A stretch of 8,045 nt of DNA. Origin: Anaerolineae bacterium. GTDB taxonomy: Bacteria; Chloroflexota; Anaerolineae; B4-G1. The notes below the pieces were generated by a model, which was not told the origin of the DNA, searched no databases, and saw only the letters and a program-made list of their open reading frames with translations. The stretch spans positions 1 to 8,045 of the forward strand of contig JAUWOI010000183.1 in the NCBI GenBank assembly GCA_030612185.1. Reading direction: 5' to 3'. How positions within the stretch are numbered: the first letter of the stretch is position 1; each line of letters begins with the position of its first letter. A program made the position numbers and the translations under genes. Shown here one piece after another: positions 2-8,045 of the stretch.

Positions 2-622
2 CAGGCTCCTTCGACAGGCTCAGGGCAGGGCACAGAGAAGGTGGAGTTTTTGATGATCCGCCCCTACGTGCCAGCCGGCAAACAGAACATGATCGCGTGG
101 CTGTACGCCAATTCCGACGGCCCCGACTACGGCCAACTGGGCGTCCACAAATTCTCCAAGGAGACGTTGGTGTACGGGCCGATGCAGGTCGAGGCACGTA
201 TTGACCAGGACCCCTACATCTCGCAGCAACTGACGCTGTGGAACCAGCGCGGGTCGTCGGTCATCCGAGGTAACCTGATCGTCATCCCCATCAATGGCAC
301 GCTGCTCTATATTGAGCCACTCTATCTGCAGGCTGAATCTGGCCGGTTGCCCGAACTCAAGCGCGTACTGGTGGCACACGGCAACCGCGTCGCCATGGCC
401 GACGACCTGGAGACGGGGCTGGCACAGGTGTTGAGCGAACTACCGGTGACGACTCCTGTCGAACCGCTGCCGACCGATGTGGCAGCACTGTCCCGCTCGG
501 CCCAGGCGCACTACGAGGCGGCTCAGGAGTGCCTGCAACGAGAGGACTGGACCTGCTACGGCACAGAGCTGGAGGCACTGGCCCACGACCTGGAGGCGCT
601 TGTTGCCGCGACAGAAGAATAG
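2..622 (+). CDS. UPF0182 family protein, C-terminal part (5' end outside window)
   Basis: The frame is open to the window edge, so this is the last ~206 residues of a longer gene; UPF0182 (COG1615) proteins usually have about 900-1000 residues, with N-terminal membrane segments and a large soluble part. A GTG at 41 and an ATG at 53 exist but are internal. The stretch KQNMIAWLYANSDGPDYGQL, then VYGPMQVEARIDQDPYISQQ, LTLWNQRGSSVIRGNL and IEPLYLQAESGRLPELKRV, is the strongly conserved C-terminal block of the family. After a Pro/Thr-rich linker comes the usual small helical tail (SAQAHYEAAQECLQREDW). The first ~15 codons translate a dispersed repeat (APSTGSGQGTEK) where relatives have a short variable loop before EFLxxxPxxPxxKxNMIAW. 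The molecular function of UPF0182 is unknown. It lies upstream of the defence locus, separated by a long non-coding gap, and is probably a host housekeeping gene marking the edge of the island. Confidence 0.9.
   Translation, partial: QAPSTGSGQGTEKVEFLMIRPYVPAGKQNMIAWLYANSDGPDYGQLGVHKFSKETLVYGPMQVEARIDQDPYISQQLTLWNQRGSSVIRGNLIVIPINGTLLYIEPLYLQAESGRLPELKRVLVAHGNRVAMADDLETGLAQVLSELPVTTPVEPLPTDVAALSRSAQAHYEAAQECLQREDWTCYGTELEALAHDLEALVAATEE
4..31. repeat. Dispersed genomic repeat unit inside the UPF0182 gene
   Basis: The core CCTTCGACAGGCTCAGGGCA matches a short interspersed repeat I recall as frequent in Chloroflexota and some other bacterial genomes (variants of CTTCGACAAGCTCAGG). Here it is read in frame as PSTGSGQG within a coding region, at a place where UPF0182 homologues have a variable loop. 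Only one copy is visible in the window, so the repeat assignment rests on recall and not on a second copy. Confidence 0.5.
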
Positions 623-1194: not shown

Positions 1195-1223
1195 TTGTGC
1201 TTTTCCGCGCTGTATGATACACT
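1195..1223 (+). promoter_or_regulatory. Weak sigma70-like promoter candidate for the BREX operon
   Basis: TTGTGC (1195-1200) and TACACT (1218-1223) are 17 bases apart, matching 3/6 and 4/6 of the -35 and -10 consensus. An overlapping TATGAT (1213-1218) is a better -10 (5/6) but lacks a -35 at the right distance. The position, about 80-90 bases before brxF, is reasonable. Nothing else in the gap looks better. Confidence 0.25.
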
Positions 1224-1305
1224 CCACATACTAACCGCATACGAACGGTGGAGAATCTGTGGGGTCACCCTCGCAGCAAAAAAGGGACGTTGGAGTTTAC
1301 CCCAT

Positions 1306-1800
1306 ATGTCCAAACTCTCATTGGCCAAACTCGCTGAGATAGAGCAACTCCTGCCTGACATCGCTCACCAGTATTATCGGCTGGCCCTGGTTGCTGGTCC
1401 AACTGGTTCGGGCAAGACACCGCTGCTCAAAGAACTGTGCCGCCGGCAGGACATCCCCTACCTCAACGTCAACCTGGCTCTCAGCCAGCGTCTGCTCGAC
1501 CTGACCAGCAAGGAGCGCCCCCTGCGCGTGCGCCGGTTGCTCGACGACGTGATTGGCGAGCAGCCAGGGGACGTCATTGTTCTGGACAACATCGAATTGC
1601 TTTTCGACCCGGCCCTGCACCAGGACCCGCTGGTCTGCCTGCAAGCACTCAGCCGCAACAAGACGCTCATCGTCGCCTGGAGTGGCACGTATGATGATGA
1701 GGATGATGATGAGAAGAGAGTGCTGACTTATGCCGAGCCGGGACACCCCGAGTACCGCCGCTATGAACGTCCTGAAGTGATCGTCATTGCCTTGCCGTAG
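1306..1800 (+). CDS. brxF: BREX type 3 P-loop protein BrxF
   Basis: A 164-residue protein, the size expected for BrxF, the small nucleotide-binding subunit specific to type 3 BREX phage-defence loci. Walker A is GPTGSGKT at residues 31-38 and a Walker B-like [10 protein letters not shown] lies at 91-100. [15 protein letters not shown] (53-67) and [12 protein letters not shown] (142-153) are also segments I associate with BrxF. The ATG at 1306 is chosen because GGAG at 1292-1295 lies 10 bases upstream and the protein then starts at the family's normal position; an upstream TTG at 1195 would add 37 unlikely residues. An acidic stretch (residues 130-136) is coded by a GAT-type microsatellite. 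Its stop overlaps the AGGAGG that serves brxC, so the two are surely co-transcribed. Its role within BREX, presumably ATP-dependent work with BrxC, is inferred. Confidence 0.88.
1691..1713 (+). repeat. GAT/GAG trinucleotide tract in brxF
   Basis: A short in-frame run of GAT, GAG and GAA codons codes for the acidic DDEDDDE segment of BrxF. Slippage here would change length by whole codons and keep the frame, so it could vary between strains without breaking the gene. Confidence 0.5.
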
Positions 1801-1816: not shown

Positions 1817-2725
1817 ATGAAATACAAAGACCTGGTCCAGTTTGAGCCCATCGAGACCGTCGTGCAATTGCGGGAAGCCGACGACAAGCAAGGGGCGGCC
1901 ACTCTGGTCAAGACCTACGTCATCTCTGACCGCATGGCCGACTTGCTGACGCGCCTGGTGATCCCCCAGTTGCAGTTCGCCGCGCCAAAGGACAACAAGG
2001 GGCTGCTGGTCGTGGGTAACTATGGCACCGGCAAGTCGCACCTGATGTCGGTGCTGTCCGCTGTGGCGGAACACGGCGATCTGGTCGCGTCCCTGACCAA
2101 TGAGCCTGTCACCGGCGCAGCCGAGACCATCGCCGGCCAGTTCCGCGTCGTGCGCACCGAGATCGGCGCGACGACTATGCCCCTGCGCGACATCCTGTTC
2201 GGCGAACTGGAGTTGGCTTTAGGGAAGATGGGCATCGCCTATTCGTTCCCAGCGATGAACGAAGCGCCCAACAGCAAGGACCTGCTGGTGGCCATGATGA
2301 GCGCCTTCTACGAGAAGCACCCCGAACAGGGATTGTTGCTCGTCGTGGACGAGTTGCTCGACTTCCTTCGCTCGCGGCGCGACCAGGAATTGGTGCTGGA
2401 TTTGACCTTCCTGCGGGAGTTGGGGGAGGTCTGCCGGTTGTCGCGGTTCCGGTTTATGGCCGGCATCCAGGAGTCGCTGTTCGACAGCCCCCGCTTTCAG
2501 TTCGTGGCCGACTCGGTGCGCCGGGTGAAGGACCGCTTCGAGCAGGTGCGTATCGCCCGCGAGGACGTGGCCTACGTGGTGGCCGAGCGGCTGCTGCGCA
2601 AGGACGCCCAGCAGAAAGGCCGCATCCGCGAGCACCTGCAGCGCTTCACGCCCTTGTACGGCACCATGGCCGAACGGATGGACGACTTCGTGCGGCTCTT
2701 CCCGGTTCACCCGGCCTACCTGTAG
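1817..2725 (+). CDS. brxC: BREX type 3 ATPase BrxC (DUF6079), N-terminal part ending at an in-frame TAG
   Basis: 302 residues before a premature stop; with the reading frame that resumes at once (2726-5530) the whole gene would code for ~1,237 residues, a normal length for this family. It starts [20 protein letters not shown]. Walker A is GNYGTGKS at residues 67-74. Walker B is LLLVVDEL at 173-180, with D178-E179 as the likely catalytic acidic pair. A conserved block, [16 protein letters not shown] to [10 protein letters not shown], follows at 214-246. These features are typical of the large AAA+-like ATPase BrxC/PglY, a core BREX component needed for defence. The stop comes just after FPVHPAYL, where the sequence would be expected to continue as YLEVFERVYVAEKR, so a GAG-to-TAG change explains it. 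The product would hold the whole nucleotide-binding core but lack three quarters of the protein. It could be a real mutation, a split gene or a sequencing error. Confidence 0.85.
2723..2725 (+). other. In-frame amber codon interrupting brxC
   Basis: TAG stands where the frame on both sides is continuous and clearly one protein (HPAYL, stop, VFERVYVAEKREVL). No indel is needed; one base change from GAG (Glu) is enough. No ribosome binding site serves a restart: the next in-frame ATG (2786) has its nearest GGGAGG 23 bases upstream. The GTG at 2726 directly follows the stop and also lacks one. Confidence 0.85.
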
Positions 2726-5530
2726 GTGTTCGAGCGGGTGTACGTGGCCGAGAAGCGGGAGGTACTCAAGACGCTCAGTGCCGAGATGCAGGCTCGCCTG
2801 GAGAGCGACGTGCCGCCCGACCAGCCGGGCCTCATCGCCTACGATTCCTACTGGACCAGGCTGCGCGAGAACCCCTCCTTCCGCAGCATCCCGGAGATCA
2901 AGAAGGTCATTGATAAGAGCCAGGTGCTGGAAGACCGGGTGCGCAATGCCTTCACCCGGCCCCAGTACCAGCCGGCTGCCCTGCGGATCATCAACGCCCT
3001 CAGCGTCCACCGGCTGACCACCGGCGACATCTACGCCCCGCTGGGCGCTACCGCCGAGGAACTGCGCGACAGCCTTTGCCTTTACCTCCCCATACCGGAG
3101 CAGGACGCCGATTTCCTCAAGACCACGGTCGAGTCAACGCTGCGGGAGATCACGCGCACCGTCAGCGGCCAGTTTATCTCGTTCAACCCCGACAACGGCC
3201 AGTATTACCTGGATCTGAAGAAAATCATTGACTTTGACGCCCAGATCGAGCAGCGAGCGGAGAGCCTGGACGACAACCAACTCGACCGTTACTATTTCGA
3301 GGCGCTGAAGCGGGTACTGGAATGTGCGGAGTCCACCTGCGTCCCCGGCTACAGCATCTGGCAGCACGAGGTCGAGTGGCGCGAGCGGAAGGTGACGCGC
3401 CCCGGCTATCTCTTCTTCGGCGCGCCCAACCAGCGCTCCACCGCCCAGCCGCCCCGCGAGTTCTACCTATATCTACTCCAGCCTCACGCCCCGCCGTCGT
3501 TCACCGACGAACAGAAGGCCGACGAGGTCTTCTTTCGGTTAGCCCGACCGGACGAGGAGTTTGAGACCGCGCTCAATCTCTACGCCGGCGCCCGCGAGAT
3601 GGCCGGGTCTGCATCGGGGGGCAACCGGATGCAGTACGAGAAGAAGGCTGACGGCCACCTCAAACGGTTGCAGAAGTGGCTGCGGGAAAACACGCTCCAG
3701 GCGGTGGACGTGACCTACAAAGGCGTGACCAAGCCGTTCGTTGAATGGGTCAAAGGGGGCACAACGCCTCGCGCTACAGCATCCGTGCGCGACCTGGTCA
3801 ACGGCGTGGCTTCGGCCTGCCTGAGCACCTACTTCGCCGAGCGGTTGCCCGATTACCCGGCATTCTCCATCCTGGTCACCCAAGCCAGCCGGGCGCAGGC
3901 GGCCCACGAAGCGGTACGCTGGCTGGCTGGTGGGCTAAAGACGCGCCAGGGGGCTGCCGTGCTCGATGCGCTGGATCTGCTGGACGATAACCGCGTTAAA
4001 GGGCGCGACTCGCGCTACGCCGGTTACTTCCTGCAGCAACTATCCCACAAGGGCGAGGGCCAGGTGCTCAACCGCTCCGAGTTGATCGGGGGCGAGATCG
4101 CGGCCGAGGCCGACCGCCGCTTTGGCTTGGAGCCGGAGTGGGTGGCGGTGGTTCTACTGGGGCTGGCCTACACCGGCGAGATCACGCTGGCCCTGCCCGG
4201 CCGCAAGATTGACGCCGGCAACCTGGAAGAGACGATCAAGATCCCCATCGCTGACCTGGCCAACTGGAAGTTCATCGGACGGCCCAAGGGTCTGCCGCTG
4301 GCCGCGCTCACCGAGTTGTTCCAATTGTTGGGGTTGCCCACCGGGCTGATCAAAGACGCCAGCCAGCACGACTCAGCCATTGAGCAACTTCAGAAGCGGG
4401 TGGCCGGTGAACTGGACCGGTTGGTGTTGGCCCGGCAGAAGGCTCGGGGTGGCTTGCCAGTGTGGGAGGCCAACTTGCTGGAGGGCCAGGCAAAAGCCGA
4501 CCTGCTGCGCCGGCTGGATGAGCACAAGTCCTTCCTGGAGTCGCTCCAGACCTACAACACCCCCGGCAAGTTGCGCAACTTTCGCTACAGCACCGACCAG
4601 GTGAAGGGTCAGACGGCCGGCCGGGTGCTCGTGGGCGACCTGGAAACGCTGGCCGAGGTGGTCGCCGCCATCCAGCCGCTGACCGCCTACCTGGGCGTGG
4701 CCCTGGCCGTCCTCCCTGCGGTGAGCCTGGCCGAACTGCCCGCCGGTCACGAGTGGTCACAGACCGTCAAGTCCCTGCAGACGGAGCAACTGGCCCAACT
4801 GCGAGACCCCCAGAACTGGCGCCAGCCCACGCTGCGCGCTTCCCTCAGTGGCGCGCTGGAGAACCTGAAGAGCGAGTATATCCAGGTCTACCTGAACCTG
4901 CACCGTCACGCGCGGCTCAACGGGGCCGAGGACGACCGCAAGAAGCGGTTGATGGGCGACCCGCGCCACAAGCAGTTGACCGGGCTGGCCGCGATTGACT
5001 TCCTGCCGGTGGCCGACCTGAAGGAGTGGGAGAGCCGTCTGGCCGACCTGCGCCCCTGCTACGCCATCGGCGCTTCCGACTTGAAGGAACATCCCCTGTG
5101 CCCCAATTGCGGCTACCGCCCGGTGGAAGAACCGGCGGGCAAGCCCGCCCAAGCCATACTCGACGAGCAGGAGGACAGGCTGGACCAACTCTACACCGGT
5201 TGGACCAACGCGCTGCTGACCAACCTGCGCCAGGAGGCGACCCGGGCCAACGTCGCGCTGATGACACCCGATCAGCAGAAACTGGTTCAGGGCTTTCTGG
5301 ATGCCGGCGCATTGCCAGACAAGGTGGCCTACGACTTTGTGCAGACGGTCAAAGAGGCGCTCACCGGTCTGGAGCGGGTCGCCGTGCCGCCGGAGGATAT
5401 TCTGATGGCGCTGACGGAAGGGGGGATGCCTTGCACGGTGCAGGAACTTCTGTCCCGATTCCGCAGTTTCGTGGAGGGGCGAACTGGGGACAAGGACCCC
5501 AACAAGGTGCGGATTGTGGTGGAGTGGTGA
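2726..5530 (+). CDS. brxC: BREX type 3 ATPase BrxC (DUF6079), C-terminal part after the amber codon
   Basis: 934 codons in the same frame as the N-terminal part, starting VFERVYVAEKREVLKTLS. This part holds the long, mainly helical body of the DUF6079 protein. A possible metal-binding element lies near the end: Cys1081, then CPNC at 1095-1098 in whole-gene numbering. The last 70 residues (LPDKVAYDFVQTVKEALTGL to VRIVVEW) recur as a second copy at 6737-6955. Because it has no plausible start signal, it would be translated only by read-through or reinitiation, and it is best seen as part of one interrupted brxC gene (1817-5530). The frame is otherwise intact over 2.8 kb with no further stops, so the nonsense change looks recent or the fragment is still under selection. 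The stop is followed after one base by the ATG of the next gene. Confidence 0.85.
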   Translation: MFERVYVAEKREVLKTLSAEMQARLESDVPPDQPGLIAYDSYWTRLRENPSFRSIPEIKKVIDKSQVLEDRVRNAFTRPQYQPAALRIINALSVHRLTTGDIYAPLGATAEELRDSLCLYLPIPEQDADFLKTTVESTLREITRTVSGQFISFNPDNGQYYLDLKKIIDFDAQIEQRAESLDDNQLDRYYFEALKRVLECAESTCVPGYSIWQHEVEWRERKVTRPGYLFFGAPNQRSTAQPPREFYLYLLQPHAPPSFTDEQKADEVFFRLARPDEEFETALNLYAGAREMAGSASGGNRMQYEKKADGHLKRLQKWLRENTLQAVDVTYKGVTKPFVEWVKGGTTPRATASVRDLVNGVASACLSTYFAERLPDYPAFSILVTQASRAQAAHEAVRWLAGGLKTRQGAAVLDALDLLDDNRVKGRDSRYAGYFLQQLSHKGEGQVLNRSELIGGEIAAEADRRFGLEPEWVAVVLLGLAYTGEITLALPGRKIDAGNLEETIKIPIADLANWKFIGRPKGLPLAALTELFQLLGLPTGLIKDASQHDSAIEQLQKRVAGELDRLVLARQKARGGLPVWEANLLEGQAKADLLRRLDEHKSFLESLQTYNTPGKLRNFRYSTDQVKGQTAGRVLVGDLETLAEVVAAIQPLTAYLGVALAVLPAVSLAELPAGHEWSQTVKSLQTEQLAQLRDPQNWRQPTLRASLSGALENLKSEYIQVYLNLHRHARLNGAEDDRKKRLMGDPRHKQLTGLAAIDFLPVADLKEWESRLADLRPCYAIGASDLKEHPLCPNCGYRPVEEPAGKPAQAILDEQEDRLDQLYTGWTNALLTNLRQEATRANVALMTPDQQKLVQGFLDAGALPDKVAYDFVQTVKEALTGLERVAVPPEDILMALTEGGMPCTVQELLSRFRSFVEGRTGDKDPNKVRIVVEW
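5336..5530 (+). repeat. 3' end of brxC, copy A of an imperfect direct repeat
   Basis: The last 64 sense codons of brxC (5336-5527) align without gaps to 6761-6952. By hand I count 173 of 192 identical bases and 59 of 64 identical residues; 12 codons differ silently and 5 change the residue. The stop codons differ (TGA here, TAG in copy B). Confidence 0.9.
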
Positions 5531-5531
5531 G

Positions 5532-5786
5532 ATGACAACCTTATCGCCTGATACACATCCCGAAATCGAGCGCTTGCAGATCAAGCGGCTGCGCCAGATG
5601 CCGCCCTGGCGCAAGATGACGTTGATGGCGGGGATGAGCCAGACGGTGCAGACGTTGGCTCTGGCCGGGTTGCGCCAGCGCCACCCCGACGACACCCCTG
5701 CCCAGCGCAGGCGACGCCTGGCCGACCTGCTGCTAGGCCCAGACCTGGCCACAAGGGTCTACGGTCCCTTGCTGGAGGAGGACTGA
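5532..5786 (+). CDS. Small conserved helical protein paired with a nucleotidyltransferase
   Basis: 84 residues, basic and predicted helical, starting [20 protein letters not shown]. The pattern [42 protein letters not shown] is one I recognise from small uncharacterised proteins of Chloroflexota and cyanobacteria that almost always precede a nucleotidyltransferase-fold protein. The ATG at 5532 is preferred to an upstream GTG at 5514, which lies inside brxC. The spacing to brxC is one base, and its stop overlaps the ATG of the next gene in TGATG, so the pair is translationally coupled. A toxin-antitoxin or regulatory role is plausible from the arrangement but not shown. Confidence 0.75.
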
Positions 5787-6361
5787 TGCTGGCAGAACAG
5801 ATTGCGGTAACGATGATGGTAGCCGATGCCCTGGACGCCCTGGGCGTGCCCTACGCTATTGGCGGCTCGTTTGCCAGCGCGTTGCACGGCGTGATGCGCG
5901 CCACGATGGACGCTGACATGGTGGCTGACCTGCGCCTGGAACACGCCGAGCCATTGGCGCAGGCGTTGGGCGATGCCTTCTATGCCGACGCGGAGATGAT
6001 GCGCGACGCCGTCCGCCGCCATAGATCTTTCAACGTTATCCACCTGGAGACGATGTTCAAGGTGGACGTCTTTGTAGCCAAGCCGCGCGCTTTCGACCGC
6101 TCCCAGTTGGCCCGCCGCCAGTTGCATCTGTTGAGTGAGGACCCCGAGCGCCGCGCCTACGTCGCCACTGCCGAGGACATTGTTCTCTCTAAACTGGAAT
6201 GGTACCGGATGGGCGGCGAGGTTTCCGACCGCCAATGGCGTGACGTGTTGGGCGTGCTCAAGGTGCAGGGCGACCGGCTCGATCGCGACTATCTGCGCCG
6301 CATGGCCACGGAACTAGGCGTGAGTGATTTGCTGAAGCAAGCGTTTGGGGAAGCGGGCTAG
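5786..6361 (+). CDS. MNT/AbiEii-like nucleotidyltransferase-fold protein
   Basis: 191 residues. The nucleotidyltransferase signature is visible: GGS at residues 26-28 ([15 protein letters not shown]), the first metal-binding pair D42-x-D44 ([10 protein letters not shown]) and the third acidic residue D94 (FKVDVFV). The block [20 protein letters not shown] (128-147) is a conserved C-terminal element of this group. Such minimal enzymes transfer nucleotides to a protein or RNA partner in some toxin-antitoxin systems (MNT/HEPN, AbiE), so it may act on its small neighbour or on a cellular target; this is inference. All expected catalytic residues are present, so it is probably active. A GGAGGAG lies just before the ATG, which overlaps the previous stop by one base. 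It forms a mobile-looking two-gene module inside the BREX locus. Confidence 0.78.
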
Positions 6362-6362
6362 A

Positions 6363-6830
6363 ATGAAAGATAAGAATCTCAAATGGTCGTTGCCTTACTT
6401 GGTGTTTGACGCAAAACATCACCTCGACGTGCGTGGAAAGCCAGGCATCTATCGCATCCGTGCGTTCACGGAAGACGGAGAGCCGTTGCCTATCTCCAGA
6501 GCTGTTGGGGTCGATCCGCTGGGCGTGCTGCACATAGGCAAGTCCAATGACCTTGGGCGAAGGTTAAAACTCTTCCGCCGGGCCGTGGAAGGTGCACAGG
6601 CCTCCCACCATGCCGGACGAGAGTACGCCAAGTGGCACTTTGAGAGGCTGGTTCCGCGTGAGCGACTGTGGTTCGACTATGTGCTAACCGCCGACGGAGC
6701 CGCCCGCGACGCCGAGCGGGCCGAGTACCTACCGTGCTCCCGGAGAAAGTTGGTTGTGGCTTTGTGCAGACGGTCAAAGAGGCGCTCACCGGCCTGGAGC
6801 GGGTCGCCGTGCCGCCGGAGGACATCCTGA
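6363..6830 (+). pseudogene. GIY-YIG nuclease-like protein, 3' end lost
   Basis: ATG at 6363, one base after the nucleotidyltransferase stop, with GGGGAA 10 bases upstream. PGIYRIR (residues 27-33) and LHIGKSNDLGRRL (56-68) match the GIY and YIG parts of the GIY-YIG fold, with HIG in place of YIG and R66/R67 as candidates for the catalytic arginine. A glutamate in ERAEYL (118-123) could be the metal ligand. GIY-YIG domains are endonucleases found in repair, homing and restriction. At about 6730 the sequence changes into a brxC tail in another frame, so the last ~32 codons (to 6830) are nonsense out of frame and the normal C-terminus is missing. The domain core may survive, but the gene is best called truncated. 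Confidence 0.6.
6699..6730 (+). repeat. 32-bp segment shared with the 5' end of pglX (copy 1)
   Basis: 30 of 32 bases match 7944-7975, and both are read in the same frame (AARDAERAEYL here, AARETERAEYL in PglX). It ends exactly where the GIY-YIG sequence changes into the brxC remnant. Confidence 0.75.
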
Positions 6831-6955
6831 TGGCGCTGACACAGGGTGGGATGCCTTGCACGGTGCAGGAACTTCTGTCCCGCTTCCGGGGTTTTGTGGA
6901 GGCGCGAACCGAGGGTAAAGATCCCAACAAGGTGCGGATTGTAGTGGAGTGGTAG
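6737..6955 (+). pseudogene. Remnant of a second brxC: last ~70 codons only
   Basis: LPEKVGCGFVQTVKEALTGL through KVRIVVEW, then TAG, is homologous to the end of BrxC (5312-5530). The first eight codons are similar only at protein level; from 6761 on the DNA is ~90% identical. There is no start codon or ribosome binding site of its own, and upstream it joins the GIY-YIG gene in a different frame. The mostly silent differences from the complete copy show that this piece diverged while part of a working brxC, so it is not a fresh tandem duplication. It is probably the scar of a recombination that placed 5531-6736 between brxC and its former downstream neighbour. Confidence 0.85.
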
Positions 6956-6966
6956 AGGATATTCTA

Positions 6967-7860
6967 ATGCTAGACATTGACGCCGTACAGAAGAACATCT
7001 TCCCAGGAGCACACGACTCCATTTGGCAGGCGTTTCCCTGGCACAGCGGGGCAGCCAGTCCTCACTCGTCGCAGGCGCTGGCCGTGAGCGTGTTTGGCAC
7101 AATCGCCGTACATCCTTCGCGCCAGGCGTTGATTGACGAGACACTCCGCCTGATGTTTGGTTGGGACCCTCAAGGCGACAACGGATGGCGCGTGGAACTT
7201 GAGAGAGAGCTGCCGCGTAGCCTGCTGGGCGAGCGACGACCAACCCAGGTAGACGTACTTCTACAGAACAGAACCAGCGTCGTGGTGCTGGAATGCAAGT
7301 TCACTGAATCGGGTGGCGGTTCTTGCTCTCAGACCAAGCCGCGATCATCCGGCGAGCACGAGGGAATCATCCAGTGCGACGGCAGCTACAAAGAGCAAAC
7401 CAACCCCGTCAACAACAAGACTGCCCGCTGCGCCCTGTCTGCGAAGCGCATCCGCTACTGGAAGCATATCCCCAAGTACCTTGATCTGGACAGAGACAAG
7501 GACTATGAACCCTGTCCCTTCGCCGGACCGGCCTATCAGTACATGCGTAACCTCCTAGCCGCGGCCCAGTTGGCCCGGCGAAAAAGCAAACCAGAGAGAA
7601 AAGTCCGCGCTGCATTTGGCCTGGTCTATGTCGAGGGAGAACCGTTCGCCGTGGCCAACGAGGCCGCCGACCCTCACAGCGAGTGGGGGCAATTCGTCGC
7701 ACGTCTTCGCTCCGATTCTTCTTTGGCGGTCGGGGTAATCTCCTACCAACGTCTCCTGGAAATCTGGTGCTCGCGCTTGCCGGAGGATCCGGTTTTGGCT
7801 CGCCTTGCCGACTGGGTTACTGAAAGAGTGGACGACGTTGGACAAACAATCCAAACCTGA
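6967..7860 (+). CDS. PD-(D/E)xK nuclease, PGN_0703-like putative restriction endonuclease
   Basis: 297 residues. The nuclease core is visible as VELERELP (76-83), QVDVLLQNRTSVVVLECKF (94-112) with D96 and E109-x-K111, and a following GGGSCSQ (116-122). Cysteines 120, 137, 155 and 183 could bind a metal. The arrangement SSQALAVSVFG (34-44), then D...ECKFTE, then SC..., with a later aromatic-rich segment AGPAYQYMRNLLAA (186-199), resembles the PGN_0703 family of putative restriction endonucleases; that name is recalled and not searched. The ATG at 6967 is chosen because AGAGGA (6954-6959) lies 7 bases before it; a GTG at 6949 would overlap the brxC remnant. The gene is intact. It sits directly before pglX, so it may add DNA cleavage to the BREX defence. 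Other options are a stand-alone defence nuclease or an uncharacterised nuclease family. Confidence 0.65.
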   Translation: MLDIDAVQKNIFPGAHDSIWQAFPWHSGAASPHSSQALAVSVFGTIAVHPSRQALIDETLRLMFGWDPQGDNGWRVELERELPRSLLGERRPTQVDVLLQNRTSVVVLECKFTESGGGSCSQTKPRSSGEHEGIIQCDGSYKEQTNPVNNKTARCALSAKRIRYWKHIPKYLDLDRDKDYEPCPFAGPAYQYMRNLLAAAQLARRKSKPERKVRAAFGLVYVEGEPFAVANEAADPHSEWGQFVARLRSDSSLAVGVISYQRLLEIWCSRLPEDPVLARLADWVTERVDDVGQTIQT

Positions 7861-7895: not shown

Positions 7896-8045
7896 ATGAC
7901 CCACCAACCCGAACTCATCCCCGACCAACCCTCCCCCGACCACGCCGCCCGCGAGACCGAGCGGGCCGAGTACCTGGAGCGGTTGCGCGAGAGACTGAAG
8001 GACCCCGAATTCCGCGCCATCGAGGGTTTCCCCATCGGCGAGGAC
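7896..8045 (+). CDS. pglX: BREX type 3 adenine methyltransferase PglX, N-terminus (runs off the window)
   Basis: The 50 residues present start MTHQPELIPDQPSPDHAARE and reach DPEFRAIEGFPIGED. The DPxFRxIEGFPIGxD block is the usual opening of the BREX-3 PglX (PglXI) proteins, just before their first methyltransferase motifs. PglX methylates adenine in a non-palindromic site and marks host DNA as self in BREX. GAGGTG at 7882-7887 lies 8 bases before the ATG. It follows the nuclease gene after a 35-base gap. In canonical BREX-3 loci this gene directly follows brxC, so everything between 5531 and 7895 is an addition. The catalytic motif (typically [ND]PPY) lies beyond the window. Confidence 0.75.
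   Translation, partial: MTHQPELIPDQPSPDHAARETERAEYLERLRERLKDPEFRAIEGFPIGED
7944..7975 (+). repeat. 32-bp segment shared with the GIY-YIG breakpoint (copy 2)
   Basis: Matches 6699-6730 at 30 of 32 bases in the same reading frame (AARETERAEYL). It lies in the pglX N-terminal helix, before the conserved DPEFRAIEGFPIG block. Confidence 0.75.

What the first reader, a model, noticed from the sequence alone, without database searches (positions are those of the whole stretch)
5336..6955. Accessory module bracketed by two diverged copies of the brxC 3' end
The last 64 codons of brxC recur at 6761-6952 with 173/192 identical bases, and 12 silent against 5 residue-changing codon differences. The piece thus diverged under selection in a working gene and is not a fresh duplication. 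Between the copies lie the 84-aa protein, the nucleotidyltransferase and a truncated GIY-YIG gene. This suggests that a foreign BREX-3 locus recombined here, or that the module entered by homologous recombination carrying its own brxC tail, and that the 3' end of brxC is an entry site for accessory genes.
Basis: partly seen in the sequence, partly recalled or inferred. Interest (0 to 1): 0.72.

Follow-up and report, generated by a model that had tools for sequence, protein, structure and literature searches.

The report
Two spliced BREX-3 cargo units
A bacterial anti-phage (BREX type 3) gene cluster seems to carry the welded ends of two related clusters, each with its own add-on genes, which suggests that such add-ons change hands together with scraps of the core genes beside them.

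Summary
The repeat is real: 173/192 bases, 12 silent and 5 replacing codons. Bases 6699-6731, read as the end of the GIY-YIG gene, are a relic of pglX codons 17-27: 30/33 bases to the window's pglX (at most 22 in 200 shuffles) and the same 11 residues as pglX of a related genome. The layout is brxC-p84-NTase-GIY'|pglX'|brxC'-REase-pglX: two brxC-cargo-pglX units end to end. In its last 64 codons the second tail holds no residue absent from 53 related BrxC tails, so it became a relic recently, after the brxC lineages had diverged. That argues against a local duplication; the tail tree is unresolved. Core-gene scraps beside cargo occur in a few other genomes. Gaps above 600 bp occur in 39 of 87 brxC-pglX junctions against 19 of 209 other core junctions, though 17 of 55 behind pglX also. 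Most likely an incoming BREX-3 segment joined at short non-homologous ends. Embedded cargo in BREX is known; paper listings searched showed no report of such scars.

The parts
1195..1800 (+). brxF, BREX-3 P-loop protein
   Evidence: NCBIfam NF033453 E 6e-49, PADLOC BrxF E 1e-49
1817..5530 (+). brxC of unit A (DUF6079), with an in-frame TAG at 2723-2725
   Evidence: PF19557 over both halves; stop seen
5309..5530 (+). tail 1: 3' end of the resident brxC, counterpart of tail 2
5532..5786 (+). p84, 84-aa protein, partner of the NTase
   Evidence: 84% to L115, 75% to L053; found beside the NTase in each of the 30 NTase loci fetched and in L154
5786..6361 (+). nucleotidyltransferase-like protein of the pair
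   Evidence: weak PF10706, E 0.02, below cut-off; 88% to L115; match at E <= 1e-20 in 95 of 361 genomes
6363..6698 (+). GIY-YIG-like gene, about 112 codons kept, 3' end lost
   Evidence: the 12 homologues aligned continue differently from about residue 113 on
6699..6731 (+). relic of a second pglX, codons 17-27
   Evidence: 30/33 to 7944-7976 and 30/33 to L116 pglX; maximum 22/33 in 200 shuffles; in frame with GIY'
6734..6955 (+). tail 2: last 73 codons of a second, diverged brxC, with stop
   Evidence: PF19557 E 1e-14
6967..7860 (+). REase-ARP family restriction-endonuclease-like protein, presumed cargo of unit B
   Evidence: PF22558 68.9 bits, cut-off 27; 79% to P0097
7896..8045 (+). start of the other pglX (PglXI), cut by the window end
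   Evidence: PADLOC PglXI E 4e-6; 80% to L084 (same contig as L115) over 50 aa

Best explanation
The window is a composite of two diverged BREX-3 loci. Unit A is brxF-brxC-p84-NTase-GIY-pglX; unit B is brxC-REase-pglX. A segment of one locus, from the last 73 codons of its brxC rightwards, became joined to the pglX 5' end of the other at short non-homologous ends. That left a pglX scrap and a brxC scrap between the two cargo sets, and the operon now carries both. Shown: the order, the pglX and brxC relics, and comparable scraps in a few other genomes. Well supported: that the two brxC lineages had diverged before the relic formed. Inferred: that the right end entered by ordinary homologous recombination in pglX or beyond (homology-facilitated illegitimate recombination), and that the REase came with tail 2. 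The cargo probably acts as add-on defence: the REase as a DNA-cutting effector, p84-NTase as a toxin-antitoxin-like pair; neither was tested.
For: pglX relic 6699-6731, 30/33, translating exactly as codons 17-27 of the L116 pglX. The GIY homologues aligned leave the window's frame there. Tail 2 has no residue outside the family set of 53 tails in its last 64 codons; four neutral changes would already make that unlikely (P = 0.036), yet it differs from tail 1 at 19 sites, 14 of them third positions. Silent divergence from tail 1 (12 codons) is close to that between tail 1 and the brxC of another genome, L115 (14 codons). Unit A without GIY exists: L115 reads brxC-p84-NTase-pglX, with both core genes incomplete. 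L157 keeps about 8 brxC codons before p84 and the NTase. One genome can hold two diverged BREX-3 brxC genes (G397, two contigs).
Against: No intact brxC-REase-pglX donor was found; REase matches at E <= 1e-15 occur in 4 of 396 genomes of the class of G002, the best 38% identical. Two joints about 35 nt apart need a complex event or two events. The tail tree neither supports nor rejects separate origins. If 9 of the 19 differences had fallen neutrally in the relic, 5 or fewer replacing codons would still occur in 19.5% of simulations. The right end lies outside the window. Reads were not available.
Confidence: 0.62

Rival explanations
1. Two complete BREX-3 loci stood in tandem and a deletion removed everything from early pglX of the first to late brxC of the second.
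For: Gives the same pglX'|brxC' joint. L025 has two whole pglX genes in a row and L126 a pglX followed by a second pglX-like ORF; shrunken old pglX copies lie before the whole one in L059 and L011. L049 and L116 have a short brxH-like match upstream of brxF, not followed up.
Against: No tandem pair of whole BREX-3 loci was seen among the loci compared; many are cut by contig ends.
Confidence: 0.2
2. Chimeric metagenome contig.
For: No whole genome and no reads are held. The two tails share exact runs of up to 35 nt, enough to mislead a short k-mer assembler.
Against: A jump between the tails would fuse them, not make a pglX'|brxC' joint elsewhere; the longest exact stretch at the pglX relic is 19 nt (sequences). 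Comparable scraps occur in separate genomes.
Confidence: 0.1
3. Local tandem duplication of the resident brxC tail, followed by cargo gain.
For: L100 shows such a duplication of 11 brxC codons, by eye at a 7-nt microhomology. In the small DNA tree the two tails pair, support 62/68.
Against: A free relic would collect odd residues at least as fast as silent changes collect in the working gene; tail 2 has none in 64 codons while 12 silent differences exist. The pglX relic differs from the local pglX in 2 residues.
Confidence: 0.06

Closest known systems
T6SS immunity-gene arrays of Vibrio cholerae (PMC5361080; passages seen)
   Same: New modules enter beside a conserved gene by proposed homology-facilitated illegitimate recombination and leave displaced 3' remains.
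   Different: There the core is an effector gene; here it is the brxC/pglX pair of a defence operon, with scraps of both core genes.
Orphan Rhs/CdiA 3' ends (known here from the PMC5361080 passages and a search listing)
   Same: Constant 5' part, displaced 3' parts with their cargo.
   Different: The brxC tail is not itself variable; the variable part is separate downstream genes.
Auxiliary nucleases embedded in BREX loci (PMC12839542, section 35 part 1 of 2 read); Payne et al. 2024 preprint, title seen only in reference lists
   Same: PD-(D/E)XK and other nucleases inside BREX operons.
   Different: In the main text of PMC12839542 the words recombination, duplication and displacement were not found; I saw passages of the rest, not the whole.

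Membership tests
BREX type 3 | BrxF, DUF6079-type BrxC, PglXI in order | tested here: met
   only 50 codons of pglX lie in the window
BREX type 3 | BrxHII, PglZ, BrxA downstream | not testable with these tools
   beyond the window; no whole genome held
BREX type 3 | working brxC (needed for function, not for kinship) | tested here: inconclusive
   in-frame TAG at 2723-2725; whether real or a sequencing error is unknown
REase-ARP (PF22558) | score above curated cut-off | tested here: met
   68.9 bits against 27
GIY-YIG (PF01541) | score above cut-off | tested here: not met
no hit for the window protein; of three homologues scanned one has no hit and two reach E 0.065 and 0.16, below cut-off.
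Toxin-antitoxin pair (p84-NTase) | two-gene unit found in various places | tested here: met
   p84 beside the NTase in each of 30 NTase loci fetched, the best-scoring of the matches in 95 genomes; flanks differ by eye
Toxin-antitoxin pair (p84-NTase) | toxicity neutralised by partner | not testable with these tools
   needs expression
Homology-facilitated illegitimate recombination | one joint with little or no homology | tested here: inconclusive
   about 3 nt shared at the joints by eye; parent sequences unknown
Homology-facilitated illegitimate recombination | other end in homologous DNA | not testable with these tools
   outside the window

The most novel reading that the evidence does not exclude
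BREX-3 loci trade brxC-end/cargo/pglX-start cassettes, with the conserved gene ends serving as recombination arms, so that cargo and methyltransferase specificity turn over together; the toxin-antitoxin-like p84-NTase pair persists, with its brxC and pglX scraps, after BREX is lost.
Probability: 0.3. Interest if true: 0.7.

Novelty: new variant of a known kind. Interest (0 to 1): 0.5.

Why it matters
The papers I saw describe defence genes embedded in BREX operons but, in the parts read, not how they get there. The scraps point to exchange in units bounded by brxC and pglX ends, and offer markers (brxC 3' and pglX 5' or 3' relics) by which past swaps of cargo and methyltransferase can be counted in any genome collection.

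Tried and rejected
Tail tree: inconclusive. Donor search for the REase and GIY genes in 396 genomes of the class of G002: 4 distant REase hits, no GIY hit (no positive control). IMG/VR scan for brxC: one locus, match without the C-terminus. Sliding identity of the window's brxC against the 29 relatives in A1: P0003 best or tied best in most blocks, but not in 526-675 nor in the last 34 codons; too short to build on. Rfam: nothing at gathering score. Inverted repeats near the joints: none of 12 nt or more within 60 nt. The GIY end as a natural C-terminus: rejected by its homologues. Natural GIY-PglX fusion: the frame does run on, but the 29 GIY homologues listed are 122-156 aa long, so not pursued.

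Rows dropped before counting: pglX N-terminus hits in L019, L040, L041 and L042 lie in the same open frame as the whole pglX of that locus, so they are its own start (checked); those in L028 and L029 (E 0.0022) overlap the end of a 1199-aa cargo ORF and are weak. Many tblastx rows (weak, often on the other strand), the L051 repeats there and a brxA row for L022 at E 0.012 were not counted. Of 55 BrxC relatives P0002-P0056, two that do not end in EW were left out of the tail tests (53 used). In one search three minus-strand ORFs of L011 were replaced by one plus-strand ORF, and one minus-strand ORF of L116 and two small ORFs of L062 were left out. The REase query was in a wrong frame and was redone. 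One search held duplicate loci (for instance L096 = L061); one search is the deduplicated count. The 209 other junctions leave out brxC-brxH (1, long), pglX-pglX (1, long), brxH-brxF (2, short) and the window's brxC-brxC.
Full report
WHAT IS THERE. The window is the left part of a BREX type 3 operon: brxF, brxC of the DUF6079 kind, accessory genes, and the first 50 codons of pglX. The closest BrxC relative with a named source is from an Anaerolineae MAG (P0003, 94% over the part searched). No whole genome is held. Tail 2 reaches back to codon 862.

THE MISSED JOINT. The GIY-YIG-like frame follows its homologues to about residue 113. The nearest, P0216, then continues EALALERRLHKEYR and ends at residue 145; the window instead reads AARDAERAEYL. 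This is pglX codons 17-27: identical in residues to the pglX of L116, 30/33 bases to it and 30/33 to the window's own pglX, against a maximum of 22/33 in 200 dinucleotide shuffles of the region. Two bases further on, brxC codon 862 begins, in another frame. The order is brxC, p84, NTase, GIY', pglX', brxC', REase, pglX.

WHICH CARGO GOES WITH WHICH TAIL. In L115 brxC is followed at once by p84, NTase and pglX; brxC lacks its 5' part there and the pglX match ends after 94 codons. In L002 a piece of p84 (28 residues, 64%) lies about 380 nt behind brxC before the contig ends. In L053 two NTase genes lie before pglX, the second with p84. So p84-NTase goes with tail 1. That the REase goes with tail 2 is inferred from its start 11 nt behind the tail's stop codon; no intact donor was found.

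AGE AND ORIGIN OF TAIL 2. Every one of its last 64 residues occurs at that position in at least one of 53 related BrxC tails; simulated neutral change gives this with P = 0.084 after 3 and 0.036 after 4 substitutions. Yet it differs from tail 1 at 19 sites, 14 in third positions. If all 19 changes had been neutral, 5 or fewer replacing codons never occurred in 5000 simulations; if only 9 had been, they occurred in 19.5%. So the codon counts alone do not exclude a duplication; the residue test speaks against it more strongly. The one residue of tail 2 foreign to the family is a cysteine at codon 869, near the joint; tail 1 also has one, at 868. Over 64 residues, 8 of the 53 database tails are nearer to tail 2 than tail 1 is, and 4 are nearer to tail 1 than tail 2 is. 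A tree of 55 protein tails separates the two with little support, and the sister grouping is not rejected (AU p = 0.149); a 7-row DNA tree pairs them with support 62/68.

SCRAPS IN OTHER BREX-3 LOCI. I searched 37 other brxC-pglX gaps above 600 bp with their own brxC and pglX ends, 51 gaps of all kinds above 600 bp with their own core proteins, and 47 brxC-pglX gaps of at least 60 bp, the window's among them, with profiles. Four further loci stand out. L100: 11 brxC codons plus spacer duplicated, 63 nt at 95%. L062: about 60 codons like a pglX 5' end between cargo and pglX; they run on in an open frame of some 120 codons with its own start, so a small gene is not excluded. L059: between brxC and a 344-aa cargo gene, 22 residues of a pglX end (82%) fused to what looks by eye like a pglX start; a whole pglX follows the cargo. 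L011: pieces of a pglX end (E 2e-6 and 5e-5) and of a pglX start (weak, E 0.011) before the whole pglX. The 14 gaps of other kinds gave no hit. Control: own proteins hit 5 of 51 gaps, proteins of other loci 7 of 102, so raw rates do not differ; but the control hits are largely the same L011 and L062 pieces (three tests) and starts of the locus's own pglX (L040, L041, L042), plus weak rows (L020, and a brxC row in the L041 test). The six-frame profile scan gave no hit on the minus strand and one weak one (E 0.042, L129). L025 has two whole pglX genes, L126 a second pglX-like ORF. No other locus has a long second brxC tail: 0 of the 79 other loci with a brxC end (81 searched) and none among the 29 fetched, some of which repeat earlier ones.

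SCRAPS OUTSIDE BREX. In 361 genomes of the class of G002, 95 have an NTase relative at E <= 1e-20. Of the 30 loci fetched, L156 and L158 are BREX loci already known. L157 (G214) has about the last 8 brxC codons, with a changed stop, before p84 (score 21, 0 of 100 shuffles reach it). Behind its NTase is a stretch that looks by eye like a pglX start, but its score of 13 (p 0.01) is weak: L180, with no other sign, scores 15. L160 (G018) has a pglX 5' relic behind the NTase (score 30, 0 of 100; profile E 7e-6) and none before p84. The other 26 show no clear scrap; L159 and L172 upstream and L161, L168, L174 and L180 downstream reach p < 0.05 with low scores and were not counted. L154 (G007), picked because of its tail hit, has about 36 brxC codons followed by p84 with the window's spacing and a broken NTase. 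G214 and G018 are not among the 32 of 396 genomes with a brxC match, and G007's one match is this tail. Whether the pair moved out of BREX with these scraps or survived the loss of BREX cannot be told.

THE CARGO PLACE. Deduplicated and without the window, 39 of 87 brxC-pglX gaps exceed 600 bp, against 0 of 88 brxF-brxC, 0 of 34 pglZ-brxA, 2 of 25 brxH-pglZ, 0 of 6 brxA-brxH, 9 of 33 pglX-brxH and 8 of 22 pglX-pglZ (odds ratio 8.1, P = 2e-11 against 209 others, which count the window's brxF-brxC too). The gaps behind pglX (17 of 55) are not significantly fewer (P = 0.11), so the cargo place is both sides of pglX rather than the brxC 3' end alone. Loci cut by contig ends bias against long gaps, and some loci are close kin. 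Of 58 cargo proteins scanned (55 from 37 other gaps, 3 from the window), the first 25 families shown by each library include Schlafen/AlbA_2 (6 members), PADLOC candidate PDC-S68 (5), PtuA (2), Y1 transposase (2), and SIR2_2, PDDEXK_3 and DUF6036 (1 each).

MECHANISM. One incoming BREX-3 segment with a short, non-homologous left joint and a homologous right end explains the pglX'|brxC' weld in one event, as proposed for V. cholerae effector modules (PMC5361080, passages); that such events occur is reported for E. coli conjugation (PMC3240628, abstract). The GIY'|pglX' joint some 35 nt away needs an earlier deletion or a template switch in the same event. A tandem pair of loci with a deletion fits the sequence equally well but needs more steps. 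That one genome can carry two diverged BREX-3 brxC genes is seen in G397.

WHAT IS KNOWN. Nucleases embedded in BREX operons are in print (PMC12839542, section 35 part 1 of 2; other passages). In its main text the words recombination, duplication and displacement were not found. My searches listed no paper that, by title and start of abstract, reports such scraps; the library holds open-licence papers only, and no paper was read whole.

Mended: 79, not 78, loci; about 8, not 9, brxC codons in L157, and its pglX start marked as weak; L126 as a pglX-like ORF; the raw control rate stated; the dropped rows checked.

Noticed in passing
window 2723-2725: In-frame TAG splits brxC at about DUF6079 model position 303; both halves otherwise match the family end to end. 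Real nonsense change or sequencing error unknown.
   Followed up: partly
window 2-622: 3' end of a UPF0182 gene upstream of the BREX operon.
   Followed up: no
L095 4354-5431: An 85-nt spacer before pglX recurs three more times at 92-96% around a 209-aa cargo ORF in the brxC-pglX gap; two Y1 transposase matches were found among all the cargo, which members was not told.
   Followed up: partly
L059 12069-12188: A short open frame that looks like the first and last 20 or so codons of pglX fused, between brxC and cargo, in Ornatilinea apprima.
   Followed up: yes
L025 12138-17420; L126 2917-7970: Two whole pglX genes in a row (L025); a pglX and a second pglX-like ORF (L126).
   Followed up: no
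L115: BREX-3 core in decay (brxC without its 5' part, pglX match ends after 94 codons) while p84 and NTase are open.
   Followed up: partly
L153 (reverse strand), around 983-1150: Decayed orphan brxC tail with a stop, near an unrelated 2179-aa ORF.
   Followed up: partly
L049 3720-3905; L116 1209-1403: Short brxH-like match upstream of brxF, perhaps a piece of another BREX locus.
   Followed up: no
The window's BrxC protein is listed on an 8045-base contig, its REase on a 13079-base contig; perhaps a second assembly of the same DNA.
   Followed up: no
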